Source: Dysidea avara
Lineage: Eukaryota; Porifera; Demospongiae; Dictyoceratida; Dysideidae
Direction of reading: 5' to 3'
DNA: 64,000 bases
NCBI RefSeq assembly: GCF_963678975.1
Contig: NC_089276.1
Coordinates: 4,675,098 to 4,739,097, forward strand
Shown here piece by piece: positions 6,001 to 61,500 of this stretch (position 1 is the stretch's first letter; the number at the start of each line of letters is the position of its first letter). Below the pieces are notes generated by a model. It was not told where the DNA came from. It worked only from the letters and a program-made list of their open reading frames with translations, and did no database searches. The translations under genes were made by a program, and so were the position numbers.

Positions 6001-9000
6001 CTTTGGTAATGTACATGAACTCTCTCTCTCTTCTGGGCAACATATAGTTGAACTCTCCTATAGGGTAAACCAGCTTGCCTATGGCTGATTTTGGGATCTA
6101 CAATTACAAAAAGGAGTGGCAAATATCATTGGCATTTACAAGTCTTCCTGTAGAGAGTTCGGCCACATTACAAGTCACCCTGTAGAGGGTTCAGCTACAA
6201 GAAGTCAAAGCTAAGTTACAAGCTACCCAGTATAGAGTTCATTATGAGCTATACAAATATGTCATTTCTGTAGAGAGTTCTGCAGGAGTTATAATTATTA
6301 CAAGTTGCACTTTTGGTACATGATAATAATAATTAACAACTAGCTAAATAGTTCAAATCAATAAAATTTGTCTTCTCTTCTTCCTACAGTAAAGAAAAAA
6401 CAATGTAAAAATGACTTGTAATGTAGCTGAGAGCTTTAATAGAATGTATAACTGATAGGGTGACTATACTATTAGAGGTGTTTCGATTGCTCACTTGCTA
6501 TGTACAAGTAGATGGTTTTTGCATAACTCACAGGTTTTGAACCCCAATTATTCTTTTCAACTGAAAGGCCTTTCTAAGATGATTACTGCAGAGCCTGGTT
6601 GTTAAGTGCACATATATATTAAGTGCATATTACCTGTTAAGCGCATACTCATTTCTCGTACTTAATCGTGGATGATAAGTGCATGTGGACGAACACGAAG
6701 CTCCAACATGAGATGACTTACCAAGCAAGACGGTCTTCTGTAGTATGCTCCACATGAAAGATTCAGTGTACTAAAACTGGACTCAAAATATTGGTACATG
6801 TAATGACTGCAATTCACACTACCCCAAGAGAGGAAATCCATAATAATCATGATGAGGTTTATTTATTAGGCACATGCGCTTAACAACTATAATATTATGT
6901 TAATCACAATATTTTTTCGCAAACTTATATTAGGCATATGCACCTAAGAACCAGATTCTACGGTAATCTACTTTCATGGCTACAGGGTAAACCACTTCCA
7001 AGGTACGGATTGAAAATAGGTTTGTAGATAGATTAACCATTGTAGAGGTACTAGTACAAATAAAGACCATTGAGTTACAAAATAAAACAAAAAAAACTCC
7101 AACCATGTGTATCAGGCACACAATCTAGCTTGGTGAAAACACATCTACCAGACAAACCACTGAAGGGGACATACTGAAAATTGAAATGTTTTACTTTTTA
7201 AAAAAATCATACATAACTCTTTTAATCCGATCTGTACAAAATTTGAACTGTAAATGTGCTGTATGACACTGCTACATACTGCCCTCCAAATTTACGAAGA
7301 AATAAGACAAACTTTGAAGGTGCATATCTCAGTGATGGCTAGGTGGGTTTAACTCAAATTTGGAAAAGGAAGTGCCCCACCCTGAAAGAGTTTCCGCAAC
7401 AAAATTGGATAATTTCTGTTTAGGAACTATCAAGCTATGAATGTGAAAAAACAACATTTTTGGTTCCACTTGTTTGCTATGCACCCGAAGCAGCTGTACT
7501 TGGCCACATGATACACCATTTGCTTAATAACCACATTATATATGAAACAATATAGTCTTTGTCTACAGACAAATCGTTCTACTGATGGCAACCTTCTAAT
7601 AGTATGAAAATAACTCATTAACGACTAAACTTCAAAGCATACTATGTGTGCTATAGTCTAATGTGTTATTTCATAACAAGCTACTTGCTGTCTAACTTTC
7701 ACAATCCAATAGATACCTGTGGGTAGGTATTTAAAATCGTTAGATACCTGTGACAAAACTATTTGTCACATGGGTAATGTGCTTTGCTGGATTCTAGTCA
7801 CAACAGCCATCAGAAATCACCACTAGAGTGTGAAGAAAACATTGCTGGATCATAAAGATGATCGTATTCATCTAGGAAGCCAACCAGTGAGTTATTTTAG
7901 CATCAATTCGATCAGGAAGCCGCCATTACTGGCAGTGACCAGAGCTGCTTGAGCCATAATCTAAATCAGTTCTTGCACAAATCCACAGTATCTTCACTAT
8001 TTAAAGACCTTCAGAATGACACAATAATCAGCTCGGGCGAAATTGTGCCATATTCCTCAGGTCCCTAAAATAGTGAAGATACCTGGATTTGTGCAATATA
8101 CTTAGTTACAGTCAGGTATGAAGACTGCTCTGTATTAACAGCCAAACACACTGGGATACTCAAATTATATTCTGACTAAAAGTCTCTAATAATACAATCG
8201 CTATGAATGGCAGTTTACTATATACAAAAAGGCTGCACAATAGACTTGTTTTGTCCAGGCAGCCAAATGTATCCTAATGTTGAGGCTATGAAAGTGAAGC
8301 AACGGCAGTTATTTAGTAAGCAGATTTCAACCTCCCTATTACCACTCCCCAGATTTCCAATAACAAAGCAAGAATAAGATGACTGCCAAATTACATACAT
8401 TTACAGGACTACCTGACTGTTCTATGAGATTTCTCCTTGTATTGCCCAATGGAACAACAATATCACGATATCAATATATTATTTGGATTAACACAGTGTC
8501 TGTTAATTTCCTTAGTCTTGAAATACTAGGCTTGCTATTTCATTGATTATCACATGATGCTAGGGGACAAAATGACACTGCAAATCAATATTGAGATACA
8601 GTGGAACCTCGGCTATCTGAGCCCCTTGGGACCAGGGGTGGTCCATAAGCTAAGTCTGAAAAGAAAAAGTCTGTATATTTCTGAAACTGGTATAAATAAC
8701 CTATAAAGAACATTGATAAAAAAATGTCAGTATTATTTAACTACCCTAACAGAACAGTAACTACTCTAATAGAGCAGTCATTTCTGTAGTTCGGTTAACT
8801 GAGAATCTGGATAAGCACAACTGAGGTTCCACTGTACTCTAATAGAGCAGTCAAACAGACAGTTATTGTTCAAAAAACACATTGTCAAAATTCTGTGATA
8901 TTTAGTCATATCATGCCTGATTTTTTAGCCATGATATAATTTTTAATACAGATAGTGTAAACAGTGCTGTATATAACACACCTTGCTGCTTTGTGCAGAG

Positions 9001-9826: not shown

Positions 9827-9907
<81 letters not shown>

Positions 9908-11215: not shown

Positions 11216-11373
11216 GTTGACAATGACGTGTTGTTTATCAGTATTTTGGTAACCAAGTTAAACCTTGGGGGTGTGTCCATATCATTATTCTATTTAAAGC
11301 TTACTGCGGTTGGTAGCTAAGATTTTATCACTTTTTAAAGCTAGTTCATCTTACGGTCAGATAGGCTCGATAT
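11216..11373. promoter_or_regulatory. Shared head-to-head promoter (inversin-like / HMG-box gene)
   Basis: Only 158 bases separate the two divergent start codons, so both promoters and both 5' UTRs must lie here or overlap the coding starts. There is no obvious TATA box at a convincing distance. Inferred from gene layout only. Confidence 0.55.
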
Positions 11374-14932: not shown

Positions 14933-14972
<40 letters not shown>

Positions 14973-16115: not shown

Positions 16116-16168
<53 letters not shown>

Positions 16169-21476: not shown

Positions 21477-24400
21477 CTATGATTTCACTTTGACATCAAT
21501 GACAGCTTGATAGTTCTCAACGGCTAGTAAGATTAATCCAATTAAAGTCAAACAGAATGCTGCCATATCTTTGGGTGTTCTCCACCACCTGCGAGAGTGT
21601 CCATGAAGATGTCGATAATGTTGATAGCGTATCTTGAGAAAAGCAATTGGCGGTAGAACGTACAAGATGAGACAACCACCGATGGAACCCACAAAGTCCC
21701 ACACTTTACTAACCTAAAAGAATATAGAGAAACTTTACAAAAACAATACACAATGCCATAACCCCTTTTAAAAAGCAGTCTGTAAAATTCCTGGATAAAC
21801 TGTTTGTTCCAATGGGATACAGTTATAGCACCGTGCTTCAATTCAAACACATGATGAAATATAGGCACATGCTATACAATACTACACTAATACAAACGGC
21901 AGATTAGCCTCACATCTGTTATGTTGCTAGCAGACACGAATGTAACAGCAAACAATATCCATGTCTCCATAAACCACATTGTTTTGCTCATCTGTAAGGG
22001 AGTAACCATGGTAACTATGAGATCACATGAGCTTAAAATTACACTTCTAAAGAGAAACAGGGAGTATGTAATTGTGGAATGTACCAAAATACACTTTGAT
22101 GTCTACAACAATATCGACTGTTCAATTAGAGTTGTTTTACCAACAACTGTTTGTGTGTTCTATTAGTAGTTGAATGGAGCCAAGATGATTACAACATTTT
22201 TACTCACAGAAATTCAAAAATAACGTACCAGTAGTACATTGGATGTCAATGGCTCCACTAGCTGGTCTTCTTCCTTGAACGCAAACCATCGTGATCTTGT
22301 ACAGTTCCTCAGGAACAACAGTATGATACCATTGACAGCATCACGACATGGGTTCATCAGGACAGGATAACTGAAGAGTAATGTGAAGAAGAGTGCTATC
22401 CTCGCAGCTACAATCAACCCATCATTAGATGGGTAACCCTTTATGACGTCAGAGTCTGTGCAGTTACGAAACTAGAAGAAATTCACTGATAACAAGCATG
22501 GATACCAGTAGCCAAATAAGGTCACACAATATGTAGACAAATATAACAACATATTCCAAAGATGGACATATACTATACCTGCAAGTAGCCAAATATGGAT
22601 ACAAGTAGGTAGACAATGAAAGCAAATGTCATGGATACCACAATGATGGCTTGCATCTTCCTGAATGAGACGTGTCGCAGTTCTCTCTCGATGGCAAACA
22701 AGTTGAAATGACACAAAAAGGTCAAGCTACAGTATGACACACACGTCAGACCAGACACCATATCGGTCGGCCAGTTTTTGATTAGTCCTCTATCAGTGGC
22801 TTCTCCATTACGTAAAGATGACACTGATCTTATCACAATCACCAAAGTCAACAAAACGATGGCTATAATACTGTAAGAAAAAGAAGTGAATTAAATATAG
22901 GACTACGCAGGAAGTAGTGACAGTTGGCTATTTTAGACTAACTTTAAAACTACAAAGAAACAGTGAGACCAGCTAATTTTTTGCTGCATAAAGAAATTTC
23001 TTTTTCAGAAAACTCTATGGAAATTATATCGATGAAGGTATTTTTCAACTTAAATTGGCAAAAGAAGCTTCACTGTGATTGGCTAATCACTGGGGTCATA
23101 AAATTATTTGCTATTACATTAAGATGAAAAACATTACAGTAGTATTGTGGTCTGTAAAAAAATCAAGAATTACAAAACCTATACGAGCATACAAATTTTC
23201 TACCTGTACTATTTGTACACTGCTCACCTTAATGTATTAGTGTACTTCAGTGGAGTGAACTGTCTCAGTAATAGTAGAGGGAACAATGGTAGAAATGATA
23301 TACACAGTAGGACAGCATAGTTGCCTAGCAACGCTATCCACTGAGCCACACAGTCACTATCATGTCCACAAGATTTGTTCACGATGAAGTCAAGAATACC
23401 TTCAAGCTGTGATAAAACATGTATCTTATGCACAGAGACAAAACAATGATTAATGCTTAACATATGCAAGTGTACTTTGAACTAGAAAACCTTAGCACTT
23501 GTGTAATTGCCTCTATCAGGTCACAAAGTGTTTCTCTATAACAGACTAAATATATACTTTCAGTTTTTCTAAAACATAAAATCTTCAAGAGCTGTGTTGA
23601 CTTTTAAATAGCAAACAGTACACACTTTTAGCAAGAGTTAATAATAGAAGAGAGAGCTCTTCTATTATTAACTCTTGCTTTTAGTGTAACCATGTTACCA
23701 AATACTATGTGAGTAACACATATAGGGCTTTGTGATTGTCTTTGATGCAGTAGGCTTCCATTTCACCTTTGGTGAGAGAAACCAGCTGGCAGAGTTGTGG
23801 TGTTATGCACCAAAATTAATTTTAAAATATTTTTGTCCAATTTCTATCCAGTGCATATATAGGCATTTTTGATGGCTACAACTTAGTTACCTCAAAACAA
23901 CAATTTTGATATGCACAAGAATCTAAAATAACTACCAAGTTGCCCATGCAACACTATGTATGTATTGAGTATGTTTGTATCCATGTACCAGATTCCCTTG
24001 ATAAAAGCCCAGGCTTTTATTTCCTTCCAAGCATTTTTGACCAGGCCAGTGAGACTGGGCTTTTATTTTGGATTGGTCTGACCGATGCCTGGAGTTTAAT
24101 TGAACTCTGGTGGTGATATAATGGGATTACTGTAATGGTAAGCATAGAAAACAGTGATACAGCGTGTTGACAAGGCTTAGAAAAGTGTAATCAAGGCTTA
24201 GAAAATAGTTGTATCATACGTATCTGCATGCATCCTGACTCTCCTGGACTAACTCACAGTACCTTCATCCTCAGAAGGGTCTAAACAAAGTATGAAGAAG
24301 CAGCAGCAACAAGGGAACCAATTAAAACCAGACGCGGCCTCTATTCGATACCAGGCGTCTATTTTCCAAAGGCATGGGGAGCCTCCCCCACTTATAACTG

Positions 24401-27062: not shown

Positions 27063-28741
27063 CTAGTCCGTTCTCTCTTCCACAAATACAGTTTCTTGAG
27101 GAAACAATTTTGCCTCTTTGAAAGTCATTGATCCATTCAGAGTGGTGATCTACCGAAGAAATGGAAACAATATAATTAAAAATCAATTCAAGCCTTGAAT
27201 CAATTTTGTAAACTACTCTAATTAAACAGTGGACAGCTGTGTAATGGAATTTGTTCTGATATTTACTGTTGTAAACAACACACGCATGTCAACTCACATC
27301 TCTCCTAGGAAAAGATGATAGTAGTTTGTATTCAGCACCACTGTAGCCTTTAGAGCCAGTGTACATGAACAACACCTGAAAAATAACCAGACAAGAATCA
27401 ATGCAGCAAATCACTAAAAACTATGTCCCTTTATCTGTGTAACCATGCTTACTCGTAGTTTATCATCACCATGGAATCTTCTAACTAAGGAGCTGCCATC
27501 TGGACACCTCAGCCTGATGGTTGTAACATCTTCCACTCCTGCCTCTGGCTCTGCAGGCAGTTGCTCCTCACATTGTTTCTTCTTCTCCTATAACAAGTAT
27601 ATCACATGGGCTAACAACATATGGCTGCTGTGTGACAGCACTTCTACAAACTACATTACAGATCTAGTTGCACAATGCAACAACGCACACACCTCTTCCT
27701 GAATCATATGTTGTATCTTGGCTTGTGCCTCACGTTCCTTAGCTAGCTCAATCATTCTCTGCTCCTCCTCGGCACGTTGAGCCTGTTAAACACAAAGTCA
27801 AGTGACCCTTAACATCTTCTAACAGCACACACAATTGGTATACTAATCACCATAGTTAGCTTATATGTTCCAGGAAAGAACACACACCTTTTCCTTGTCC
27901 TGTGCTAAGGATTCCTGGTAGGCCATGTCTTGTTCCATAATCATTCTCCCTCTAGCAATACGTTGTTGCTCCTCTGCAGTATCATGTTCCACTGCTAACT
28001 GGTGCTCCTCCACTGCCAGGATCAGTGCTCCCATTAGTAGGTCCATCTCTGTGAAACCTGAAAGATAAGGAGGAGTACAGCTACAGAAAAATTAGGGGAA
28101 TTTAGAAATACCAATGCCACACCCACTACATAAGATGTGACATATGCGTATTTTAATTGGCAAAGCTAATATTTGGCGATTTGCTAAAATTTACATTTAA
28201 CGACATTTTAATTAGGCAAAATGCTCACTGTGTTATAACGCCAAATAGTTAAAATTAATACATCATCAAATAAAACACATTTGATAATTTTTGTTATAGA
28301 TCGCACGTAAAGCTTGACTGGATACTTACCAATCATTGCATGCTGCTCTTTTGAGTACCAATTGTACTCTCTGGGGTGCTGAGACTTTTCTGCTGCCATG
28401 CTGACAGCATTATTAACCGACTTCTGAACAGCTTCGATGTCTCCTTGGGACAAAATTGATGGGCTGCAGCTTGGGCGCCTTGTTCTATTTTGACATATTT
28501 TAACATCGACATTTTGAGCACAAGCAGCACAAGTGATTTCAAAACGGGGGGTTCAGATGAAGAATCGACCAAGTTACAAACAATCAAAGTAAAATAAGGC
28601 CTGCAGTTACAAAAATAATATCAGCGAATTTTAAATTTGGCAGTTGGTGAGCATTCGCCAATACAGCCAAATCTAATACGTCACCATATAAAATACGCAG
28701 ACGGTACATAGTACACACGCCACATACAAGGACGCGCATAT

Positions 28742-28785
<44 letters not shown>

Positions 28786-31700
28786 TCACACCTTGTATCA
28801 CATTGCGAACTTCCACTTGTCCCTTACTCTTGAACACAATTAACATGATGGGAAGGTTATTAGGATCCACAGCCATCACGCTCCTCGCAGCATCATTACC
28901 AAAACTCTCCCTCACCATATCCAACAACCTATACAACACAGTTACATACATGACACACAGCCATTTTACGTCAGTAGGATCTAAGGTATACCCATCACCT
29001 AGGAGTCGAAGGCAATTTCTTGGGAAGAACCTGTGACTCTAGTACACGTGGAAAGCCTAGAAATTTAGGATATACACAGCTTTGAAGCTCACATGATGCA
29101 TGATCTGAACATCTACCACATCCCACTGAGCCCCATGGTTTGCTAATTTTGCATTTTGATAATTGATACTTGTGTGAAATACCAAATAGAAATATGTAAG
29201 TGGTGTGCAACACATCCCAACTCTTCATTGATATACCCTCATTACAAAGAAAACACAAATGGCATTGCATGTAAATACTAAGAAACATATACACACACCT
29301 CCTGTCAGTGGACAAATAAATAATTGGCGTCCACATTTCAAAAGAGAATACAATTCAACAACTACACAACCTAGCATTAACTGTTAACACTTACTGGTCT
29401 CTCAGTTGTATTGTAGTGAGGTCCCAAGCCCAAGAAACAAAGTTCAGGGAAAGGTAATTAACGATGGACTCAGCACACAGTAGCTGACTACAGAACACAT
29501 TACTGAGGATGCTGCGATCATGGTGCAGGTAGATGAGCAGTGGTTTACGTTGGGCAGCTGGAACAGCTGTTGACTCCTTGACAGCATCTGCCAGTGAGCC
29601 GATGAAGAAGATGGGATGAACAGAGCCATACCTGCAACGGTACAAATAGTAGGGGATGACCCACAACTAAAGACAAATCAGTAGTAGTAGTAGTAGTCTA
29701 CATAAACTTTGCTGATGGCAAAACATCATTACAAGCACTACACAATATTTCTAGAAGTGGGTCTGGAATCATCACAGGAAACACACACAAATTAGTTCAT
29801 ACAGTTGTTATGATAATTGCCATATTTTACGTCACTGCTAAATCACCTATTGGAGAACTGGTGAGTGAATGAGTTGAGGGCCTCTATAGGATTGGTACAG
29901 TCAGGAGGGATCAGTGGTGCCAGGGCAGGTGGAGCTACTGGGGTCGGGTCAGTGCTCAGGGAGTCCATATCCATCTCAAAATCATCACCATCATCCTCGC
30001 TGGATTGTGCGCTAGCATATTCTTGACTGCTAGTTGAAGAGGTGGAGCCAGCTGGAGTACAGGCCCTGTTGTTATCCCTACCAGTTGTGTTGACTGTATT
30101 AGTAGTGAACTATAAGAGAAAGAAGTATTGGGTGTAACACAACACTGGCATAACACTATGCACTACATATAAGTATACACGCATGCAAGCACACACACAG
30201 ACACACTACACATACTGCATTAGAAGTGTTTTCAGCAGAATCAAGTTGTACAGACTCTAGTGTTAAAACATGTTCACCATAGTTTAGACCTGCGTCCTTT
30301 AGTAATGTCTACACCAATAAGGTGGATCATATGATCATTACATTATCATCACCAAAAGCTCACATGATCTGATAATCCAGGAGGGAGCCCCACCCACCTC
30401 TGGAAGTCAGCAGATAATCCACACTTGTGACTAGCCTGTCTCTTTAGTTCTTTAATAGTAGTTGTGGGTGATAATTGCAACTCTACTAGATGATTATTAT
30501 ACTTCACTTTGATATGACACATCCTACAAGTTGATTGAGATGTACAGCAGGTTATTGCAGAAAACAAAACTACCACATATTAACTGAAGTCCCTTTATTT
30601 TTGTACCAGTGCTGGTGTTCTGATGTCAGAGGTATTATACATTAATACAACGGTATCTGCATTCTGAACTTTCAGTTCACCAGGTATCAAAAAATAAATT
30701 TTAAAAAATGATTGCTCTATTAGAGTATATAATAAATTTTGCAAATGCATTAAATACACATTTTTAACCCTTCAAAACCTGAATTAAATTTGAAATATAC
30801 ATACAAATTTTCGAGGTACGTAATTTTCACAGATCGACAAATTTCAGGATTTTCGCGGTTTTATTTTCGAGGATCACTCATTTTTCACTGAGATTACCTA
30901 TTAGAAAGCATAGAGCTAAAACCTGATAATTGTTAATTTTAGAGGATGAAGAAAGCCACGCAATTGCTACATCTGCAAAAATTATGTCTCGAAAATTTGT
31001 ATACGATAATACGTAAGTGTGAACCATAGGCAGAGCATCAGGTGTATAACAGGATATTCTTATACACCAAATGAATTTCATGCGCTACAATAACATGTAA
31101 ACAGTTTTATACTACACTAAAGAGGCAGGCATCGTCTTTGCTGGAACTTGATGGCATTTTCAATGTTACAAGCATCCATTATAAGATTACATGATCTATT
31201 GTATACCACTGGATTCTGTAGCGCACGAGGATTCTAATGGCGCTTAGTTTAAGGCCAAAGCACCAGGTAGAGCGAAAATTTGCCTTGTTTAATGAAGCAG
31301 TGTACAGCCATGGCGGACATTTGATGAAGAAGGCTGTTTTCTAAGTGGTGTGATGAAAGGCGTTAACGCGTACCCGACTACATCAATGCTTGGTGCCATT
31401 TTATCATGGAGTTCATGGTGAGTATGTAGTGGCTGTAGGATCTTTCTATTGTTAATACTTGCGAAGTTATAGTAGTTTTGAATAGAGACATGCGTCAGAC
31501 CCTAAATATAGGCTTACCGGGTTCGAAGGGTTAAGCGCAACGTCAGAGTTACAGACTTCAGTTAACTGAATACCAGGTGGTGCCCAGACAACTATTGAAG
31601 TTCAACTGTAGGACCTAATTGTATTAGTGTACCCCCCTGAATCTGATAAGGACACCTTGATAATCAGGACACTTATAATGGTCTAGGGAAAGTGTCTTGA

Positions 31701-39900: not shown

Positions 39901-42900
39901 CTTACTTGGTCAACATGATTTATCAACTGCAAGTATCTCTGTCAAAAAGTTTAGAAGTATTAAAATATCTTTACCAGCCTAGTGAGCCTCTTCTGTTCCA
40001 CACTGAACCATTGAGAATGGCTGTAACCTTCACACCTGACAAGCAATGGTTGCTAAACATTTTAAATGATTTTATGTCATACTGCGTTTTGTGTGCGATC
40101 CCTCTATTGTACAGACACTTACCTATTATATCAAGACCAAAAATTGGTCAGTAGGTGACCTTTTGACTATCACACTCATTACAGCATGTGTAGCACAATT
40201 GTCCACTGTAGAAGACAGCTGGTGCTGGACTGTTGAACTTCATCCTACACACTCAGAAGGACATTGTCCCTCATCTGTCTAGTCCTGTGAGATACCATAG
40301 AGACCTTCACATGTCTATTGATGCTAACACAAGAAGAGCATTAGAGATTATCAAGTAATGTGTTGTATAGTGATGTGTGTATTTTGTGCATGTGTGCATC
40401 CAATACCTACATATATAATATATATATATGTATGTATGTTGTGTATGCAGTTATGTCATAGTAGGTTAGGTACTTACAGTTCCATTATCCACATATAGTC
40501 CAGCACAAGGCAACACCAGGAAGTCTACTCTGCTGGGTAGTATTGATAAGACAGTCACAGCTGGAGGTACTCGTCTACTGAAGAACAAAATCACGTATGA
40601 TAACCTGTTAGCTCCTGTGCTCTCAGAAGCTGACATCACCACTTTCATAATTTATAACACAGTTTCTGTTGGCCAGCCTTGCAGATCAGATGCTGTGTAC
40701 TAGATGATAATGTTTCTTTTTTATTATCAGAGTCTTTAATACTTTTTTTCGAAGGTTGCATGATTGCACAGGTGGCAAACAGTAGCAGTGTAAGCATTGC
40801 ATTTGTGTAGAGGCTGTGTGTGTGTGTGTGCATGCGTGCGTGCGTGGGTGTGTTTGTGTGATATTTTATCTTTTTGTTTATACTTCTACCAGAGCTCCTT
40901 CTACTGATCTGGATGAGATCCACCAGTAAGGTCACATCCTACAGATGTGACTACCTCATTACTGTACTGCTACTTGTAGCCACCTCAACTGTGTGGAGGT
41001 GTTCTACCATAAACCAATGGAGTCTAAGAACCTCCAGTTAACTCTGAAGTCCTGTGCTGACCTGGAACGTATAATTCAAAAGGTAATACCGATGATGTGT
41101 GGGCGAATAATACCAACAGTTGTGGCAAGAGTTCATTTCGTACTCTCTGAAACTGTCGTATATGTATACTACAATGGAACTTCACCCCTAGTGTGTTTCT
41201 GACATTGTGTGCAATGTTACCTTTTAACTTCTCTAATAGAGAAGTCATGCTTTGTGTACAAGTTAAGGGGATTTCTTTATAACATGTTTCTACAGATTGC
41301 AACAGACACAGTTACACCATATGACCTACAGATGATGGTAGTTACATTTAAGGCAATTGGTAAGCTATCCCTTATTGATGGTATTGTGTAATAGTGTGTC
41401 TGTGTTGTAGACAGTATTAAGGATATGGTGAAGAGTGAATTTTCTGATCTCTCTGTGGAGTACAGTGATTTGAAGTCGTTCCCTGACCTGATTACTGAAC
41501 TGAATAATGCAATAGGAAGTTACAGCAGTAGTGTGAGAAATATTAAAGTTGGTATGTGTAGTTGGCTGTTAGACTATTACTGTATTTGTAGTGTACACAT
41601 GTGAGTGTGGTGCACATATGTAAGACTGCATTGTGCGTGCTTGTGTATAGCCCTCATTTGTATACTTGTTTACCACATATTTGTATGTTGTTAGGTTATT
41701 CACGTAAGGTTGATAAACTCCGTGAAGGTTTGGAGGAGAACCGCAAACAAGCTGAAGATCTCTGTGAAGAACTAAGGTATCACAACAATTCATGGAATTA
41801 AAGTGACATTTATTTTAGGGGTCAGTGTGGCCTGACTAAGATGGCAGTGGTGGAAAACAGATATTGTCTCCGCCTGTTTGAGGTATCCAAATCACAAGCC
41901 CCTAAAGCTGAGAACTGTTCAGAACTAGTGAAGTACACAGTACACATCGAATAACTTATTGTACCATTATCTTAACTGTACACTAGGATAGAGCAGACAG
42001 CTGGCAAGACAAGATACAGGTGAATATGCTCCATTAATAATTAAACTCTTTCTCATTGTCATTTTAAATGATGAAAGTTCATCTTTTATCTGCTTTACCA
42101 GTGAGAGTGAACACTGGAGGCAAAGCCTGTACATGCAAGTAGCAGCTTTATTCTATCATGATCAGATTTACAAAATGATATCTTCCACACATGAAAGAAA
42201 TAACCACAAGTTAAGAATATGGGACATAACTCTACACATAGAAACATGTAAAATTTTAACCATTTCCCGTGTTGTATTACTTCTAAACAAATTTCATGGA
42301 AAACTGGTTGTGTGTGGAACACACCTGGTTGCAAATCCAGTCACACAAACTATTGAAGTACTATTTATATGGTTATCCAACCAACTGTTTTATTATTCAC
42401 AGCCCTAAGCACAATGTGAATCATAGCCATGTTTTTTTGTTTTGTTTTTTTTTAATTTCGTACATATTTTAGTCACGTAAAGCTGCAGCAATTGAACTCA
42501 GAATATCAGACACTTCAGGAAAAACATGAAGCCGCTCAGGACAGTGCCTTCAAAGATCTCTGTGCTAAGGTTTGTCTGCCACTTCACTGCTGTAATTGTG
42601 TGAGGTACTTGCTGTAGGTTTTAGAAAATGCTGATGAAATTAGTAAATCTACACTGGCCATTTCTAGAATGGATGTGGCTGTTTCATTAGGTCTTGTGGC
42701 TTCTGGCAGGGTGAGTGTATGTATGTGTATTTGTATGTATGTATTCTGTCTACAGGGCTATTGTAAACCAGTGATGGTGAAAGAACCGGTGTTTCACATT
42801 AAGGCTGGCAGGCATGCAGTAGTGGAGGCTATGCAAAAAGGTATAATTGTTTTGCTAACAAAACACTCCAATATAACAGTCACACTGTTGAGCGTTCTAT

Positions 42901-43827
42901 TAGAGTGTTTTCGTGATATGGAGTTACTTGGCTGATGATGCTGTTTCCCTGTATAAATAAATTGTATATATATGTGAGTTGTTTGCTTCTGAATCTACCA
43001 CAATATTCAATCTACCACAATATTTAATACTTTCCCACAATAGTTTTTAAATGCTTTTCCTGTGATTGCAGCATAATAGAAAATGCAAATACTCTAATAA
43101 AGCAGTCAGGTGTGTATAGTTCAGGGATACCATACAGTACTTATAGCTCTGTTTGAATGAAATGTTACACAGCTATATTCCCATAGACCACTTTGTGAGC
43201 AATGACTGTGACTTGGCTGAAGATAAACTATGGTTGATAACAGGACCCAACATGGGAGGTATAGATCAGATCTATGACATTATCATGTAACATACCTTGT
43301 TTATAGGAAAGAGTACCTTTCTCAGACAGAATGCTCTGATGACCATTCTAGCACAGGTGTGTAGTTTGTGTGACTACAGTAACTCTATGTACTATCACTA
43401 ACTGCAATGTTAATATTATAAAAAAAGCTATATCACCTAGTCACTTCTGGGGAGTTGACAGGATAAGAAACTTTTTCCCGAGTTCTAATTTTTATATGAA
43501 TGGTGCCTCCTGCCAAGAGTCTTTATTTATTATGTATTAGTAAGAATTAGCATATGTATTAAAGTATTTCTGTAGATGGGTAGTTTTATACCAGCTGAAG
43601 AAGCCACCATTGGTGAGTATCTTCAACTGTAGTTACTGTGTGATGTTGTGTGATGTTGTGTAGGAGTTGTGGACCGGCTGTTTGCTAGAGTTGGAGCCAG
43701 TGATAATGTTGTAAAGCACATCTCCACCTTCCATATGGAAATGTCAGAGACTGCCCATATCATCTCTCATGCTACGCCTCATTCCGTTGTGATCCTGGAT
43801 GAAATTGGTGTGCACATTACACTACAC

Positions 43828-43882
<55 letters not shown>

Positions 43883-45135: not shown

Positions 45136-45301
45136 TGTAACATATTTACAATTCATGCATTCTTTGATTCAAATCACTCAGATTATTTTTAATGACCAGA
45201 TCCAAGCTGTACACATAATTTTTGTGTTATAATTATAATTCACGTGATCAATATAATTGGATTTTTACAAAGCGTCACGAAATTCAAAATACCAATTTTA
45301 A
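45136..45301 (+). promoter_or_regulatory. Short spacer: MutS 3' end and CIP2A promoter
   Basis: Only 166 bases lie between the MutS stop and the CIP2A start, with no canonical AATAAA. The CIP2A promoter either sits here or overlaps the MutS 3' exons. The two genes could be partly co-transcribed; this is inference from spacing. Confidence 0.4.
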
Positions 45302-48073: not shown

Positions 48074-48513
48074 CCAATATGGTATTGTCTACAATGTGCT
48101 CTAATGTGTATATTGTGTAATTTGTGAATGTGCATTGAAGATTTTGTATCATTTGGTTGTTATGCCATTCTTGAAGGTATACATAAAACAGAACCTGAAT
48201 TTTGTGACTTGCATACTTGTTCTCCTTTTCAGCCACCTTACTATACAAGTATGTCCCAAAATTAACTAAGACATACTGTGCATGCGGTACGTACTTATCC
48301 AGGACCACCTAAAAGTCCATAACTCTTAAACTCTAATACAAAACAAAATTCCACTATTCTAATAGAACACTGAGGACATATACATGTTTAGGTCTATTAG
48401 GTGGTCCTAAAATGGTTTCATTGTAACTTATGTTGGATTTAGAATGCCATAGATAGTTTAATGAATCTTTACAAGTTCTCACTGTACAAGTGCAGTAGGA
48501 CACACATTTATGT

Positions 48514-48519: not shown

Positions 48520-49392
48520 TTATTGACAAAACATGTAAAAATGAAGACATTTTATGCTTCAGTTGTGTCAAGAGAGTTGACGGAGTTGTGAGGTACATGT
48601 TAAGTGATGATAGGTGAGCTAGATGTTTTATGGCCGTTATGATTTTGCAGCCATCTTGAAGGAATATGCTGGTACCAAATGGTGAAGTTTATAGTAGTCC
48701 AGAAAAGTCTTGGCTACATTCCTGCCCAACCTCAAGTCTTGTATTCTGTTAAGGAATATTCTGAATGAGTTACTACTTACTCTAGTTAACTGTATTGTGA
48801 AATCCTAATGCAAAAATTTCTTACACATTTTTTTAAAGATCAAGATTCTCTAATAGAGCAGTCATTCTCAAAAATATTTTTGCACGAAAATAAAAACTAT
48901 GGTAGCTACTCTCATATTCAAATTGTCACAATTAAATCCTCAAAATATCTACTAAAGAGACCAAAAACACGGAGAGATCTGAGGGAAGACCCGTGAACCA
49001 ATGCAACTTATTCTGACAAATCTAGCCAACATTGGAGAATATATAGCTACTTATCATCCCGCAGCTGGACATTTCTCTGTACCTTTCAGATTTTTCGTAC
49101 GTGGGGCAGCTGCAAGGCATTCTCCTACCAAGTGACTCTCCTACTGATGCATCCCAGATAGCTACTGTAGTTACATTTGTAACTTACTTGTGGTCTTGGC
49201 CTTGAGCTGCCATGATTCCTTTCGTGATGCCGTCTGAAATTCTTGAATGCGGTCTGAAATTCTTGAATGCGGTCTATGCATGATTAGCGTCAGTCCCTGC
49301 AAGCAAAAGGAACCGTCAAATTAAATTTGTCAAAGAGACAAGTTGTTCAATTCATCAAATATTTTACCATCAAAATTTCTGTTTTTACGGTA

Positions 49393-49492
49393 CTAGCAAG
49401 CATGTTAAAAAGATCGATATACTCTAATAGAGTAGTCATATTATATTCAGGTAACTCCTCTATTAGAGTATCTTGATCTTTTTTATGCTAGC
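49393..49492. repeat. Inverted pair of CTCTA-N-TAGAG repeats forming a 100-bp palindrome
   Basis: Two copies face each other: AAAAAGATCGATATACTCTA...TAGAG and CTCTATTAGAGTATCTTGAT followed by CTTTTTTATGCTAGC. The whole is an imperfect palindrome ending 18 bases from the carboxypeptidase stop codon. Confidence 0.75.
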
Positions 49493-49509
49493 AAAAACAG
49501 TTATAATCC

Positions 49510-52500
49510 TTATTCTTGGGCCCTAAGGCTAACAGTAATTATGGCAGGTCTCAGGTACATAGTCCCCACAACAGATACAGTAAGGATACAGGCTTGCTCT
49601 GTGTAAGGTTCCTGTACTTGGTTGCTACCAGTGGCATAACTAAAGAATGACACCTCCAGAGTGTAGCAGTTGGTACAAGCATTTAAACAGTTGCCTAGAA
49701 ACCTGAGTAGAGTGATATAACCATGTGACAATAGTAGATATGGTGTATACCTTCTCCCTGTTCCAGCCTTCACAGCATCTCGATTGAATGAAGTCTTTGA
49801 CTACACACACACATAATTACCACAATAACATAACATCCATATACAAAAGAATATTATAAGAGAGACAATTGGGACCCATTTATTATTACTAGAGGTAGTA
49901 GAGCCTCAGGGGCTGGAATCATAACCTGATTCTTATTGAAATTACTAGCTATCCCACTTGGGAGCATGAAAAAAGTCTACACTTCTTGACACAAAACCCC
50001 TAGCCTGTGAGATCGAACATAAATCTTGCAACTATGCAATACAGTAGGTGTCTGTATAACATGGATGCCTTGGTGTATGTGTCCTATTTACTTCAATGTT
50101 AGCTCAGGGATTTGCATAACTAAGATACACTGGTGTCCTCATTTCTCATAATATAGTCCACATCCATTAAAAGGATACGGTATACAGCATACCATAGGTT
50201 GGGCTATCAAACTATGGTAAAAGTTTTAACTGCTCAGACAACTACAGTGTATTCATTACATGTGCACAAAACAATGTTCAAATACTCTAATAGAACACAC
50301 ATCTATTCTTGAAATGCTTTGTTGCTTTTAATTTTGGACAAACGAGGGTCTACTGTATCCACTCACCCAAGAGAAATCCTCAGCATTATTACAGAGAAGT
50401 TTGGGGAAGACAGAATGTCGCTCAAACCGATCCTCCTCAGCATAAATATTACCATACATGAATCCTGTGATCATGTGATGTATTTACATATCCTAATATG
50501 GTGGTGGCTTACCATTGGTTAGAGTGGTGTGAGCATGTATGTCAATATAGAAGTCCAAATCAATGTTCTAAGATAGATAAAGCTATATATAGTAGTACAC
50601 ACGCACAGTTGTTCCATTTTATACACAGCATGTTAGGATGGAATTTCAAAAAAAGACCAGTAATAACACTAAGATGTCACCGATACTGGGGGACTTTAAT
50701 ATTTTTTAAGTACAGCTACCCATATATGGAGCAATTGTTTTGATTGGACATCGTATTTCAGCTGAGAAAAGAAAAGTGGAACTAGATATGGTTATAAAAC
50801 ATTAACTCAACTCCTTATGTGTAAGTTCTTTTTCTGTAATATCTGTTAGCATAATATATATACTGAGGAGAGTATCCTACTCTTATATACCCCTGTAGAA
50901 GGGCGTATCGTGAAGTTATGATGTAACGACAAGATGTTGTGGTTTGTGACGTACCAGCAGCCGTAAAAGTGCAAGAATCGTTAGAACCATTTCACACTCG
51001 TGACGCCGTATTTGCAAATGGCCTAGCAAGAAACGCCTACAAAGAGGTCTTAACCCATGAAGAAACGATTGTAGTTCGGTGAGAAACGCTTAGAGCTGGA
51101 GTTAATTTGGTTGCTAGCGACGTTGTTAGGCACACGTTCAATCAATACCATGTTCAACTAATGACATCATTAATTATACAAAGAAAAACGGGCGAACTCA
51201 GAAGTGTTACGTCATAACTTCACGATACGCCCTTCTACAGGGGTATATGAGAGTAGGATACTCTCCTCATTATGAACTCTTGCTGTTAGTTATCCCCAGA
51301 GCTTTTGAGTGGTCCAGCTATCCATGAGCTGCAATGGTGGTCATAGTCATGCACACTATTTTTTACTGATCTAATTATGATCTTTAAATCAGAGATTGTC
51401 TGCTTTTTTCAACTGCATGTGCTAAGCACATGCTGCCAAGCTAGGGGGTCTGGGGGCATTCGCCTCCAGGAAAATAGATGCTGTGAAATGGCATCTAGAG
51501 GCTATTTTACATGCAAAGCCTCTTTCTCCATTCAAGGATATATTCTGGTAATTTTGTACTACAATACCAATGAGTAGCTAATTTTACTTTCGTGATACAG
51601 TAAAAACTTAGTTCTTTGATATATGGAAGCCATTGGGACTGTAATGTATAACATATACGTGATCACTTAGTCCAATGCAGTGCCATGCAGATTGCTCACT
51701 GGAACTTTTGAGTAATTTGAAGACAATTAACAGAGAATCAAGCAGTGTAATTAGAACATTGGCTATATTCTATTAGAGTATTGCGATGACTGTTCTATTA
51801 GAGTATATTCCAATGACTGCTCTATTAGAGTATTTTGATCCTAATTCAAGTAGCTGAAGGCATTGTGGGCTCCGGCTCTGCTAGTCGTTAGAATTCCAGC
51901 TCTCCTTTCTTGGCTGATGAATAATTTTTTAACATAGCCACGTGTACTCAAAATTCTCCCACTACAGGGGCACATTGAATCCTGTGAATCTATCTATCCT
52001 ATTGAATCCTAGTCCATAGGATTCGATGCACTCTAGCCATTTTATGGTTTGTCACTTCAAATAGAGGTCTCATATTAACCGTATACATAACCCGATAGTC
52101 TCCACACAGCTGTGTAACACCACAGATAATATACGTAACCATAGATTGGAAACGCGCATTAATTTTTTCATCTGTCCTTGTTACAGTCACGTGATATTCA
52201 CCGTTGCTAAAGAGGGAGTGGCTAGAGTAATGCGAATGTCTAGAATATAACTACTCTTGAAACAGTTACGTAGCCAGTATTACATAGTCGAGAGTAGATT
52301 GTGCACATGTATATATAGGTTTATAATATTTTAAGTGGTTTATTGCGAATGGCTACTTCTCTGCTTCCCAAAGTTATTTTCCTTGAAGCATTGGTAGGGC
52401 TACCTAGCAGGAAAGAACTACTGATAGAATCTCCTAGAGCCCGTTGCATAAAGAAATTTGCTGATGAACTTTTGGCTACATCACAAAAAGAAGACACTGA

Positions 52501-55500
52501 GATACAAGCAAAATTTGCAACTGAATTATGTACAGTATTGGAGTCAGCGATAGAATTTTCTGCACCATCAACCATGACTAAACTAAGAGAGCAGTTATGG
52601 ATACATTATGCTGGACTAATAAACAATACACTACCACCATTGTGGAATCAATTTTCAGAAAGTATCAATTGTAGTGTACACACTGGTCAGCCATTATTAA
52701 TGGAACTGATAAATGAGAGCATTGTAGATTATTTGATTAAGAAAGCATTCCCTGTGTTGGAAGTGCCAAGAGTCACACAGTCTGTCGAGCTGAGCAAAGA
52801 TGAAGAGAATATCTTACGATATGCATGTGGTTATATTAAGGCAAAGGTTTTCAAAGATTAGTGGTGACAAAGCAGCTCTGTTTGTCAAGTGTCTAGACAG
52901 AATGAGGCATGACAACGATGAGGGTCCCACAACCTCATTTTTAGATTACACTAGAGAATGGGTGCACAAAATCAATAGAGGAGGGTTACTATGGTGTGTG
53001 ATAATACCTTTGTTTCTTTAGAACTAACTACTAGGAATGAACTTCCTGATCACTTATTAAGAACAGCAGTGTCCAGTGTATCACAACCAGAAGAGGGAGT
53101 ATCAGCTCTTGTGCAATCTATTTGCAGCAATGAAGATGTTCTTTTTCAGTGGACTTTGGTGGGTGTTGAAGATGAAGACATGAATCGAGAGTTGTTAGAA
53201 CACATTGTAAAGTTATGGATAACTATGCGAGGCTTTTCATTGTCAAGGACATGGATGGAAGACTACAAAGGAGTTATAGCAACAACAACACAGAAAAAGA
53301 AAAGTCTGGAAGCAACTGAAACAGACTAAATAGTTATATTGTATTCAGTAGTAGTATATAAGCAATATTGATATGTTATATATAGTAAAATCATTTCCTC
53401 TTCCTCTTTGGAAATGGTGTCTCATCTACAATGAAATCAGTACTCTTTCCGGTTCTCTTGCAGTTTCCTCGTATTGGGTCAAGAGCTGCCGACCCTTGTA
53501 CTCTCAGTGATATAGCAGAATCGTTAATTTGTTGTAGTGTGGGATTGTTATTGCGTCCACCTTTCATCCTTATCTGACCAAACAATGCCTCCACAGTATC
53601 CTGATTGAATACAGAAATTTTACTCCTGGCTGCTTCAAAAGAAAAGGTGCCATTTCCACAAAGTACTTCACTGTAAATTTTATAAACTGCATGTATGACC
53701 TGTAAACATTCAACTCTCCATTAACCTGTTATGTGTAATCCCTCATCGGTTTCTTGGCTTAAGATCATATGTTTCTTTTCATCTTTTGTGAAGCCTTGCC
53801 GCTTTGCAACACTTTCTTTCAATTCTTGAAGACATCCAAAGAAGTCACATTCCAGCCACTATAATATTATAACAGTCTATGATAACATATACACAATAGA
53901 GTGTATAGCCTTTTTTTGCATACCCACAAAGCTCTTGTGTAGCTGTGTCCAAAGGAATTAGACCAACAATTCCTCGCAGTTTTTGTAAGGTGAGGAACAT
54001 CCACAAAAAAGTACAAATATCGATTTTCCATACTATAGGGTTTCTCACTTTGTGTGTGATAGTCATGGGTTCTGCAGTGTCAGGATTTAATTCACAGCTA
54101 CAAGCTAACTTGTGCATCCTGAAAATTTTTCGATTTTGTGATGCTCCATCCCCAGTGACAGATATAACCTTAAACCCTGCACATTCCAGACAATGGGGAA
54201 CAATAAATCTGCAGTAACTCCATCTGTGGGGTAGTATGCATACGGAAATCGAAGGTGGATAATGAGTCCTTACACCATGAATGTCAACATATTGCTTGCC
54301 ACAGGCATTGGTTGGATGGAGTCATCAGAAAGTGAGCTTTCAAATTTCAAAAGATAGTTATTAACGGGTCCCAAATCAATAAAGCCTACAAATTTGCAGT
54401 CATGCTTGTTGTACACAATTCCTTTATCTTAACCTCATCAATAATGTCACATGTTATTGCCAGTCTTCTAACTCATCAATGTTAGTTTCTGATCTCGATT
54501 GTTTTGCTTGGAATCCTATTCCCCATTGACAAAATGTGTGTAGTCTTGCGGGTGCGATTAGTAGGAAGAAGCAATACATGGCTAAGAGCATCATATGATG
54601 ATCCTGAGAGCATAAGCAAATGCAGACACCACCTAATAATTATGGAGTGCCAACATCACTGTGTGGGGTGTTTTGAAAGATTAAGAGACTTGCTGGTTCC
54701 AAAATAATTGATGGAAGCTATTCTGCTGGTATTTCTTGTCAATATCTTCAGAGTGGCTTTTCATAATCTCTGATATCCCTCCATGAATTCCATCATCTAC
54801 AGTAACAGCTTACTTGTTATGTGATCCTTTATCTTTTTTCAAGTAAGCAATCTTCTGACAAGAATGTTTGAGCCTTCTGCTGTTTCCTGTTCTCTTTTGT
54901 GAAGTCATCTTTCATTGACATGATTCGTGCTGGTGCATTGAGATGGTGATTGGTTTTGTTGCTTGAACCAGTGATGGTAAGTTGCCCTTAAAGTGTCTCT
55001 GTATTTTGAACACTCCAAACACTTGATTCCATTAATGAGACAATAGCATTTACTTGATTTAACTGTTTCACAGAACACCTGTCCATTTAAGAGATATGTA
55101 CCACTCTTGTCTAAATAAGCAGACAATTCTCCAGATACAGCATGAAAATTACCACCCCTACTGGCAGCCATTGTAACAAACTGCTCAGGATGCCCTGGAC
55201 AGGTGTTTAGTAAGTCAATTTTCCATACCAGCTGATACAATGTTGTACAATTAACTACATCAGGTGACCCAGCTAATGCTTCACAGTCCCCACTGGAAAC
55301 TACTTGTCCATAGATAGAAAGGGACCATGTCATGTCAGAGCAAACAGTAAGGGAATGTGAAATAACTAATGGTCATGTATATGAGGCTTATGAGCACTGC
55401 TTTTGGACCTTGTATACAATGTGATGCTCACTAGAATGAGATGCATTCCATGAAGGTAATTCAATGTTGTTGAGGTCTTCAAATGGCTCAGAGTCCTCTG

Positions 55501-58500: not shown

Positions 58501-61500
58501 GACAAGTTCTTTAGTAGCACACAGTGTAGGGTGTACCCAGGGTGATGGATCATGCCAGTGTCGATTGAGGTCAAACCCCATCAGTGAGCACCTATAATTA
58601 CACATGCCCACCAGTACATGTAAAACACACACACACACAAGGCCAACAGTATCGTGCATGTCTGTAGTAAGTGTGTGGCTCACAATTAAACATCTTAAAA
58701 TGGAATCAAAAAGGACACCAAACTAACATGGGATCCTTGTACAAAGACATGGAGACCAGGACACAATAAAGATGACTATAAGCAATGTACACTCAATAAC
58801 TACATTCTGTGATGTGATTATACACAACTACAAGTGTAAAAATTTATAATACGCTAAAATGTGCAACAATTTACATTAAGGTTTACATGTTTAACTCACC
58901 GGTAATTTCCCAAGTACACTCCATCAGGGTTCAGCATGGGAACTAATATGGCTAAGTAATGTGGTGAATGAGAGATGTGTTATTTGCCTACCAATCTTAA
59001 AGATGATATGGTCCCTTAGCACCTTAGCTCCAGGATCACTGCTCATTAAATAATCTGTTAGTCCTGCAATAAGATACAAGAGTACTGTTACAAAGATGTT
59101 GCACACGAAAATTTACTGCTGTATCTCAAATTGTAAGCCCATCGTTTACTCAATTAATTTCTTATAGTTAGGTGGCTTAGCAAAAAAATGTGGACACAAC
59201 TGACAAAAGCACCAATTTTTTTCTGTGAGTTTCTTACCACATTAGATTAAAATTGTTGATAGGATCCACCTCAGGCATGCATGCTGGGAAGCCATCCAAG
59301 GCTCGGAAATATGCCTTTTTGCAATTTTGGCATTTTAAATAGTAATTTGAAACTTTAGAATAACCTAGAGTATTTCAAGTGACACTAAATTATAAAGGAT
59401 GTCATTAAGTTATAAATTATGTCATTAAATTTAAATATTTATGAACACATGTCTATGTTTTGTGTTTTATTCACAATTACTCTATTAGAGCAGTCGGGCA
59501 GTCCTGTAACACAAAGATAAGTACATCTCCACTCAGTGTTTTACATTCCCTTGAACCACAATCACTTAAAGCATGCAATGATCCACCAGACCACCACCAC
59601 AAGTATCCCTAGGCTGTGTTGTGCAGTGCATATGCACTCTCTTCAAGCATGTACGTATTTTGACAGATGGAATCTTTAGATTAGCTCACTCTGAAGTGTA
59701 CAATTTCTGGCGTAGGGGCCCAGATCTAGGAGTGTTTACCCTCTCAGAAATTTAACCATGTACTTGCTTATAGGAGAAGCTAGTATAGTACATTTCATCA
59801 ATTGTTTACTTATGATACAACAAGCGTACCATAACAAAAATAAAAACAGCAAGGAAAAGAACTAAGCTTTCTGAAAACTAATCAGTGCTGCATGATCAAA
59901 ATTATATTTGCAGGACTGATTTATTGAATGTGGGAATTTGAAAGACTATTACTGCTAGAACAGTCATCTATAATATAAAGTTCTGCTACACAGTAATAAA
60001 ATTACCATGACCACTGTGCTAGTTGAACTCTTCTTTGCATGTGATTTCAGCACAGCTATCTTACCCAATATTGTATGCATACAATTGTGCCAAACATGTC
60101 ATAGTTGAAATTCTACACTTTTGATTAACTGATCGACGACATATTGCAATTCTGTGTTCTTTACATCCTAACCTAGCATGTCACAGCTAACTATGTGTAA
60201 TCTTTGGTTGCTAAGTTTCACGGTAATGGTGACTGTAAACATGCAATATTAAAAGTTATTTTTCGCTGCTACAATTTGATCTTAAAATTGCAATACTTCA
60301 TCAGATTGCATCATATGTCTGAAACATCTTTAAAACTATAGCATTTGATATATACATACCTGCATGTCCAGTCAAGCTCTGGTAGCAAGGCAATTATATT
60401 TACATGTACGTAGTTAGTCATTTATACTCTACCATTGCATAATGAAAGCTGTTTGGAAATTCATGAAAAAAATCCATGGTGACTGCATCCCTGGGTTATA
60501 CTGTACTTAAACCACACTTTGCTCTCACAAACCCTGGTGAAATCCTATACATTATATCCACTACTACAAATATGCATTTTAGCATTAATTCAGCTTGAGA
60601 CTTGAGTAAAGGAATTTTATCTTACATGGTATACAGCTGTACTGCTGGGTTATGGTATGAAGAACCTTATTGTTGTGGTCATGCATGTGATTTCAGCATA
60701 AACACAAAATCATGCTTGTAACACTAACACATATTTTCATACTAAATAACAAGAGCTGGTGTAGTATAAGCTGGTAAGTTATCAAGCTATAGCTACTTCA
60801 CAAACAAGCACAAAATGAATTCTGTATAAGATGTGACATCTGCATGACTGCAGTATTTATTTATTTATTTATTAAGGCTTTACAGCACAAGTGCTGAAGG
60901 TCTGTAGGACACCTGGTCCTATAGCCTGCTTAAAGTTGTTACAGAAAGTGTGTTTGAAAAGGTGGAGAAGTATCCATGACTGGACCTGGGCAACCTCGAA
61001 CCTGCAGCCATCCGATTAACGTTTGAACAGGCTGTAGGACCAGGTGTCCTACAGACCTTCAGCACTTGTGCTGTAAAGCCTTAATAAATAAATAAGTGCT
61101 GTAAAGCCTTAATAAATAAATAAAATAAAACATATTATGTAAGAGATATTCATTTATTATATACCACAAACTAATTACTGCAAATATTACAGTGTATATT
61201 CATGAGCAACTATAGAGAAATTTCTCTATACAGTTTGTGGATCATACAAGCTGTATATGCTGTAAACTATAGGTGACCGGATTTGCAAAAAGTACACACA
61301 TTTTAAATACCAGCAAACAAAATGATGTAACACTTGACTCCTTATACTGAACTTGCTCTTAGTACCAGAATGCAGCCAGATACTGTAGTTACACCCATGG
61401 AAAATTTCAGGCTATTATATGCCATGATCAAAAAGTTATGAAGCTTCTAAATTCAAAAATAGGTCAAATTCTGTGTGTCACGGAAAAGGTACAGATCCAG

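What the first reader, a model, noticed from the sequence alone, without database searches (positions are those of the whole stretch)
8763..59497. Dispersed short palindromic repeat: TACTCTA-N-TAGAG(C/T)AGTCA
Seen: at least 19 copies, both orientations, at about 8763, 8836, 30710, 37432, 41227, 42892, 43091, 44795, 48352, 48845, 49420, 49453, 50282, 51767 (x3), 56211, 56925 (x2), 59477. The core is CTCTA-N-TAGAG with asymmetric flanks (AGTCA on one side, GATC/GAGATA on the other). Copies fall in introns and intergenic DNA, cluster from 37 to 60 kb and are nearly absent from 9-30 kb. It is too short for a normal MITE and too constant in the core for random AT-rich sequence. It could be the footprint or minimal unit of an unusual element, or a protein-binding site.
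Basis: seen in the sequence. Interest (0 to 1): 0.75.

Follow-up and report, generated by a model that had tools for sequence, protein, structure and literature searches.

The report
Dispersed 22-base repeat in introns
A DNA word of about 22 letters recurs about 25 times, in both directions, in introns and gene gaps of this animal-like sequence, far more often than chance allows; it may be a recognition site for a DNA-binding protein that has also been copied locally, but what it does is not shown.

Summary
CTCTANTAGAG occurs 11 times against 0.06 expected and heads the list of over-represented dispersed words of 9-12 bases. The unit is about 22 bp and asymmetric, AANTACTCTAATAGA(G/A)CAGTCA. 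A weight matrix finds 25 copies (null mean 0.125); 21 sites lie within 3 of 18 mismatches (null 0.15). Strands are balanced. None of the 25 lies in the coding-like sequence that I could mark; seven sit in introns, read by eye, of a MutS-like and a FAF1-like gene. Flanks share no common body, apart from local duplicates and a few GATC-flanked copies, so this is not the end of one long transposon; target-site duplications are not in excess. The palindrome is not maintained: its outer pair is broken in 12 of 25 copies. Copies cluster locally (P 5e-5) and many neighbours share variants, which supports short-range copying. Best reading: a recognition site for a long-footprint DNA-binding protein, multiplied partly by local duplication (0.45). 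Main rival: a neutral micro-repeat (0.30). The genome-wide count was requested thirteen times and never answered. The host is probably a sponge or another non-bilaterian animal (inferred).

The parts
8739..8760 (+). copy, head-to-tail (20 bp) with the next
   Evidence: 23.5 bits
8759..8780 (+). copy, exact consensus in 19 bp
   Evidence: 34.2 bits; 0 of 18 mismatches
8832..8853 (+). copy, exact consensus in 19 bp
   Evidence: 29.7 bits; 0 of 18 mismatches
22115..22136 (-). diverged copy, with a further degraded one about 32 bp away
   Evidence: 20.8 bits; neighbour read by eye
27211..27232 (+). diverged copy in an intron of the FAF1-like gene (read by eye)
   Evidence: 18.6 bits; flanking exons
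30709..30730 (-). copy just upstream of a FAF1-like exon read by eye at 30352-30579 (minus strand)
   Evidence: 29.7 bits
37433..37454 (-). copy in intron 1 of the MutS-like gene, exact consensus in 19 bp
   Evidence: 33.2 bits; exon 1 ends about 37350
41226..41247 (+). copy in an intron of the MutS-like gene (acceptor near 41295 read by eye)
   Evidence: 27.2 bits
42861..42882 (+). copy, left arm of an inverted pair, intron about 42841-43185
   Evidence: 19.3 bits; exons; hairpin z -3.19
42889..42910 (-). copy, right arm of the inverted pair, same intron
   Evidence: 27.0 bits
43087..43108 (+). copy in the same intron
   Evidence: 30.0 bits
44795..44816 (-). copy in intron about 44749-44897 of the MutS-like gene, exact consensus in 19 bp
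   Evidence: 32.7 bits; exons
48352..48373 (+). copy inside a 108-bp element with 12-bp terminal inverted repeats (48301-48408)
   Evidence: 23.3 bits; ends found
48843..48864 (+). copy with the AAAGATCAAGAT extension
   Evidence: 30.3 bits
49417..49438 (+). copy, left arm of an inverted pair
   Evidence: 30.0 bits; hairpin z -7.33
49452..49473 (-). copy, right arm of the inverted pair
   Evidence: 25.4 bits
50280..50301 (+). copy, A variant with CACACA arm
   Evidence: 30.4 bits
51762..51783 (-). tandem copy without the CAGTCA arm
   Evidence: 18.9 bits; tandem array found
51787..51808 (-). tandem copy, 0 of 18 mismatches (A variant)
   Evidence: 32.4 bits
51814..51835 (-). tandem copy, exact consensus in 19 bp, ggatcaaa upstream
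   Evidence: 34.4 bits
56210..56231 (-). copy without a full CAGTCA arm
   Evidence: 23.5 bits
56911..56932 (-). tandem copy (21 bp), CGCAC variant
   Evidence: 22.2 bits
56932..56953 (-). tandem copy (21 bp), CGCAC variant
   Evidence: 20.9 bits
59475..59496 (+). copy, central base T
   Evidence: 26.9 bits
63895..63916 (+). weakest accepted copy
   Evidence: 17.4 bits; 5 of 18 mismatches

Best explanation
A dispersed recognition site of about 22 bp, core TACTCTAATAGA(G/A) followed by CAGTCA, most likely bound by a sequence-specific protein with a long footprint, for example a multi-finger C2H2 or paired-type protein (the protein class is a guess from footprint length). Sites lie in introns and gene gaps in either orientation and have been multiplied partly by local tandem and inverted DNA duplication. 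Shown: the excess, the unit, balanced orientation, absence from the marked coding-like sequence, local clusters, and variants shared within several clusters. Inferred: that a protein reads it, which kind of protein, and that distant copies are kept by that reading rather than by copying alone.
For: 25 copies against a null mean of 0.125. Conservation stops at about -5 and +16 and flanks share no common body; no excess of flanking direct repeats. Precise insertion of a 22-bp unit has no known nuclear mechanism (recalled), whereas a binding footprint sets edges by itself. Core positions change less than the CAGTCA arm: 19 changes in 10 core positions against 22 in 6 arm positions among 25 sites with at most 4 of 18 mismatches, P 0.0098 under uniform placement; with at most 5 mismatches (38 sites, of which about 8.5 are expected by chance) P 5e-5. 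None of 25 copies in the marked coding-like sequence. No hairpin covariation, so reading as DNA is likelier than as RNA or a hairpin. Homotypic clusters with gaps of 20-73 bp.
Against: The G/A variant is linked to arm changes (P 0.003; 0.021 after collapsing clusters), which points to lineages of copies. The core-versus-arm contrast is not backed by the overall heterogeneity test (P 0.40 at 4 mismatches, 0.033 at 5), and clustered copies are not independent. The flanks are not wholly featureless: weak conservation at -8 and -12, about as weak as at the distant positions -35 and +40, and an AT-rich word, TTAAAAA, within 100 bp of 8 of 18 loci (1.2 expected; a maximum that high in 3 of 200 random sets), though at scattered distances. 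No binding, accessibility or cross-species data could be reached. The Amphimedon promoter survey was seen as passages only, without its logos.
Confidence: 0.45

Rival explanations
1. A neutral micro-repeat: copies of a unit of about 20-30 bp related by descent, spread by slippage, template switching and repair-templated insertion, with no function.
For: Excess information, 26.6 against 12.3 bits. Graded decay, from 6 copies with 0 of 18 mismatches to several with 4-5. Three tandem groups with different periods (20; 25 and 27; 21 bp) and two inverted pairs, members often sharing cluster-specific variants. Linked variants. Longer shared left flank in 48843, 49452 and 51814. A copy near 22147 that reads, by eye, like one with a 2-base deletion.
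Against: Distant copies stop being alike at about the same places; templated insertion should give ragged ends. No excess of flanking direct repeats. Changes from the consensus are not transition-rich (46 transitions, 68 transversions among the 38 sites, which include chance hits), unlike ordinary neutral decay.
Confidence: 0.3
2. Arms of a short foldback (MITE-like) family: the full element is the unit in inverted pairs with CAGTCA inside, and single copies are halves left after loss of one arm.
For: Inverted pairs 42861/42889 and 49417/49452 fold strongly, z -3.19 and -7.33; the second lies in a longer palindrome with GATC and GCTAGCA arms. One copy (48352) lies inside an element with 12-bp terminal inverted repeats.
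Against: 2 of 18 loci are inverted pairs. With the unit masked, flanks of 25 copies fold no better than random positions: 3 of 25 in the best 9%. Only two self-matches involve copies, over 28-29 bp. Right flanks of single copies show no second arm (read by eye). Flanking direct repeats are not in excess.
Confidence: 0.15
3. Binding sites that arose one by one through point mutation, with no copying at all.
For: No common flanking body and balanced strands.
Against: Shared variants within several clusters and variant linkage; seven gaps of 100 bp or less against 0.9 expected.
Confidence: 0.06
4. Chance or low-complexity artefact.
For: None found.
Against. Control: 129 fetched prokaryote and viral stretches (1.14 Mb), each picked for holding a seed word, gave 94 hits in all, and only 2 stretches held a second independent hit.
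Confidence: 0.01

Closest known systems
C. elegans meiotic pairing-centre motifs (12 bases, bound by HIM-8 and ZIM C2H2 proteins)
   Same: A short fixed word enriched in part of a chromosome and read by zinc-finger proteins (passages of PMC9071541).
   Different: Word and length differ; that family is defined by position at a chromosome end and by genetics, neither testable here.
Placozoan loop-anchor motif that resembles Mutator terminal repeats
   Same: A motif of a non-bilaterian lineage tied both to a mobile element and to proposed protein reading (passages of PMC12221973).
   Different: There the motif sits in a transposon's terminal repeats at promoters; here no transposon end was found and many copies sit in introns. 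The logo is not held, so letters were not compared.
Repetitive hairpin-forming elements (RHE) of sponge mitochondrial DNA
   Same: Short palindrome-bearing repeats multiplying in non-coding DNA, perhaps in the same kind of host (abstract and one section of PMC2800124).
   Different: Those are mitochondrial and defined by hairpins; this is nuclear and the palindrome is not maintained.
MITEs
   Same: Short, AT-rich, many copies, in introns and gaps; inverted-repeat elements of that look lie elsewhere in the window.
   Different: No shared body with terminal inverted repeats, and no excess of target-site duplications.

Membership tests
MITE / non-autonomous DNA transposon | terminal inverted repeats bounding a shared body | tested here: not met
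   No body shared by the copies; inverted pairs at 2 of 18 loci
MITE / non-autonomous DNA transposon | target-site duplication | tested here: not met
   Direct repeats of 5 or more bases beside the unit in 4 of 25 copies against 23.6% of 3000 random places; two of the three longest are tandem neighbours
MITE / non-autonomous DNA transposon | empty sites in relatives | not testable with these tools
Hairpin-forming element (RHE type) | maintained hairpin | tested here: not met
   Outer pair unpaired in 12 of 25 copies; covariation at chance level
Hairpin-forming element (RHE type) | location in mitochondrial DNA | tested here: not met
   Copies lie between and inside intron-bearing nuclear-type genes
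Protein-binding site family | conserved core without a shared flanking body | tested here: met
   the core-versus-arm contrast is P 0.0098, overall heterogeneity P 0.40
Protein-binding site family | bound by a protein in vivo | not testable with these tools
   No binding or accessibility data are held
Pairing-centre-like or architectural motif | regional enrichment on a chromosome | tested here: inconclusive
Minisatellite / satellite monomer | mostly in head-to-tail arrays | tested here: not met
   Head-to-tail groups of 2-3 copies at three places; of 18 loci at most 6 hold more than one copy
Described structured RNA | match to an Rfam family | tested here: not met
   0 matches at gathering threshold in the window

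The most novel reading that the evidence does not exclude
The unit is a genome-organising address, such as an architectural, insulator or meiotic pairing motif, in a non-bilaterian animal: a lineage-specific long-footprint protein reads tens of thousands of copies (if this density holds genome-wide), and short-range duplication keeps seeding new ones.
Probability: 0.12. Interest if true: 0.75.

Novelty: new variant of a known kind. Interest (0 to 1): 0.42.

Why it matters
If the density of about one copy per 2.5 kb holds genome-wide, this would be an unusually common long fixed word for an animal genome and would point straight at its reader protein. How non-bilaterian animals organise chromatin is open: a passage of PMC12221973 calls CTCF conserved across bilaterians and the loop factors of non-bilaterians unknown. 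A ready-made candidate motif makes the question testable by pull-down. If it is only a micro-repeat, it still raises the question of how a 22-bp unit spreads in nuclear DNA without transposon ends.

Tried and rejected
Rejected: end of one long transposon; maintained hairpin or strictly symmetric dimer site; described RNA family (0 matches); tRNA in the window (0 found, a scan with the bacterial code); foldback flanks at the copies in general. A partner word in the flanks is not settled: TTAAAAA lies near 8 of 18 loci, which 3 of 200 random sets match in their maximum, but its positions run from -97 to +108 without a fixed spacing; I read it as AT-rich context.

Two short frames of the MutS-like region against solved structures gave one weak match of no use and none. 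Paper searches for the letters of the core (8 papers) and of the longer unit (3 papers) listed none whose title or abstract start concerns a dispersed repeat; I opened none of them. Searches on sponge repeats and motifs gave background; one on MSH1 in sponges listed a single cnidarian paper, not opened, so the link of MSH1 with non-bilaterians is recalled. A first EM run drifted into AC repeats below its threshold and was dropped in favour of the fixed matrix.

Differences between counts: the 25 sites (matrix trained on 21 of them, so in-sample) and the 25 (plain mismatches, at most 4 of 18) share 21; the second set adds 4515, 6461, 8414 and 52579 and drops 51762, 56911, 56932 and 63895. Searches use the first set.

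Not searched: repeat libraries such as Dfam or Repbase (not on hand), so a catalogued name cannot be excluded.
Full report
What is there. The core word CTCTANTAGAG occurs 11 times in 64 kb; 100 dinucleotide-preserving shuffles give a mean of 0.06 and a maximum of 1. Among words of 9 to 12 bases found in at least five 1-kb bins, simple repeats left out, this family heads the ranking against a third-order expectation at every length. Lining up 21 copies by orientation shows that the unit is longer and asymmetric: AANTACTCTAATAGA(G/A)CAGTCA, about 22 bp. A matrix of that unit finds 25 sites at 16 bits or more, against a null mean of 0.125 (maximum 1) in 40 third-order random sequences; the matrix was trained on 21 of those sites. 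A mismatch count that is blind to position finds 21 sites with at most 3 of 18 mismatches (null mean 0.15, 20 random sequences), 25 with at most 4 (null 0.85) and 38 with at most 5 (null 8.55). The two sets of 25 share 21 sites.

Control outside the host. 129 prokaryote and viral stretches (1.14 Mb), fetched because they contain a seed word, give 94 hits at 16 bits; three stretches list two hits, one of them the same site on both strands, so two hold a second independent hit. The density in the window is therefore special to this DNA.

Host and genes. No name was given. The window carries a 923-aa single-frame CIP2A-like gene (45302-48073). Upstream of it is an intron-bearing MutS-like gene whose first exon matches bacterial MutS structures better than MSH6 (9.1e-12 against 1.9e-4); further exons read, by eye, GPNMGG, KSTFLRQ, ILDEIG, RGTS and THYHE. 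There is also a FAF1-like gene with the start of a UBX domain, an HMG-box exon, a transposase-type RNase H piece, and many short inverted-repeat elements. From memory, an MSH1-type gene in an animal points to a sponge or another non-bilaterian; this is inference. Four protein relatives were found, at 99, 91, 91 and 89% identity, without organism names.

Where the copies lie. 0 of 25 copies are in the 9744 coding-like bases that I marked by hand (15% of the window; P 0.016 by proportion; the list is rough and incomplete). Six copies lie in introns of the MutS-like gene, as I read the splice sites: 37433, 41226, 42861, 42889, 43087 and 44795. One lies in an intron of the FAF1-like gene, 27211. 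Strands are balanced, 13 plus and 14 minus among 27 sites (the 25 and two weak ones). Of 18 independent loci 13 fall in 37-60 kb; a scan test gives P 0.036, for an interval suggested by the data.

Edges and copying. Outside the unit the copies share no common body. Self-comparison of the window gives 16 matches, two of which involve copies, linking 48843 with 49452 and with 51814 over 28-29 bp. Pairwise flank scoring finds 5 similar pairs where 0.33 is expected: two are tandem neighbours, two compare flanks that contain another copy, and one (48352/50280) is a short A-rich match. Weak conservation at -8 and -12 (0.44 and 0.49 bits) is about that of the distant positions -35 and +40 (0.41 and 0.36). 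Direct repeats of 5 or more bases beside the unit occur in 4 of 25 copies against 23.6% of 3000 random places, so there is no sign of target-site duplication. Local clustering is strong: 7 neighbouring gaps of 100 bp or less against 0.9 expected, P 5e-5. The clusters are three groups with tandem members (periods 20; 25 and 27; 21), one looser same-strand pair that includes a weak copy, and two inverted pairs with CAGTCA inwards. Some neighbours share variants, for example CGCAC at 56911/56932 and ACACTC at 42861/42889; but of 9 within-cluster distances 3 are 7, above the between-cluster mean of 5.9, and 6 are 2 to 4. Short-range duplication, direct and inverted, is the natural reading.

Palindrome. 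The core is palindromic, but the symmetry is not kept. The outermost pair is C-G in 12 copies, T-A in 1 and broken in 12 of 25, and no covariation measure exceeds shuffles; the five pairs together are formed in 81.6% of cells, more than for slid partners (21.6-65%), as a palindromic consensus must give. With the unit masked, the flanks of 25 copies fold no better than random places (3 of 25 in the best 9%). Of six stretches folded whole, the two inverted pairs stand out, z -3.19 and -7.33; the tandem group at 51.8 kb gives -2.43, the other three -1.13, -0.88 and 0.09. A hairpin is not the general feature.

Binding site or micro-repeat. For a binding site: common edges without a shared body, a core that changes less than the arm (19 changes in 10 positions against 22 in 6; P 0.0098, though overall heterogeneity is P 0.40; with the looser set P 5e-5 and 0.033), no marked coding copies, no structural constraint, and no excess of transitions (46 against 68 transversions in the looser set). 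For a micro-repeat: 26.6 bits in the unit against 12.3 needed at this density, graded decay, and linkage of the G/A variant with arm changes (P 0.003 over 25 copies, 0.021 over 18 loci) and with core changes (P 0.021 over 25 copies); core and arm changes themselves are not correlated (rho 0.18, P 0.38). The information argument loses force if the motif is regional, as the scan hints. An AT-rich word, TTAAAAA, is commoner than expected near the copies (8 of 18 loci) at no fixed distance, and fits either reading. I put the binding-site reading, with local copying, first at 0.45 and the neutral micro-repeat second at 0.30; the evidence in one window cannot part them cleanly.

Comparison with the known. 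C. elegans pairing centres show that short fixed words bound by C2H2 proteins can be enriched along part of a chromosome (PMC9071541, passages). Placozoans have a loop-anchor motif that resembles Mutator terminal repeats (PMC12221973, passages), and the same paper reports 84 manually annotated, diffuse focal contacts in the sponge Ephydatia muelleri. Sponge mitochondrial RHEs are short spreading hairpins (PMC2800124, abstract and one section). Yeast mitochondrial GC clusters are a further example of tiny mobile palindromes (PMC4478555, outline with abstract and opening text). The Amphimedon promoter survey lists four enriched motifs of unknown identity (PMC4773876, passages), but the logos are not held, so identity with this unit is untested. 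The unit fails tested defining features of MITEs, hairpin elements and satellites; for a binding-site family the sequence feature is met and the decisive one is untested.

Limits. The genome of the window was never reachable (13 identical requests), relatives could not be fetched, and no repeat library was on hand. All conclusions rest on 64 kb.

Noticed in passing
36934-45136 (+): Intron-bearing MutS-like gene whose first exon is closest to bacterial MutS among solved structures and begins with a possibly mitochondrial leader (by eye); probably an MSH1-type gene, ending about 165 bp before the CIP2A-like gene.
   Followed up: partly
45302-48073 (+): CIP2A-like gene of 923 aa in one uninterrupted frame, beside intron-bearing neighbours.
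   Followed up: partly
52319-55372: A transposase-type (TNP-like) RNase H C-terminal domain on the minus strand (53394-53720); frames at 53845-54321 and 52319-52858 look transposon-like by eye but match no Pfam family.
   Followed up: partly
50860-51273: Inverted-repeat element with 68-nt arms, 96% complementary.
   Followed up: no
17654-18254: Arrays of a 21-bp unit (TTTGCAATTGAATTCGTC-like) in inverted orientation, forming a repeat region of about 600 bp.
   Followed up: no
48301-48408: 108-bp element with perfect 12-bp terminal inverted repeats AGGACCACCTAA that contains one copy of the motif.
   Followed up: partly
60853-61131: Inverted repeats with 74-nt arms, 96% complementary.
   Followed up: no
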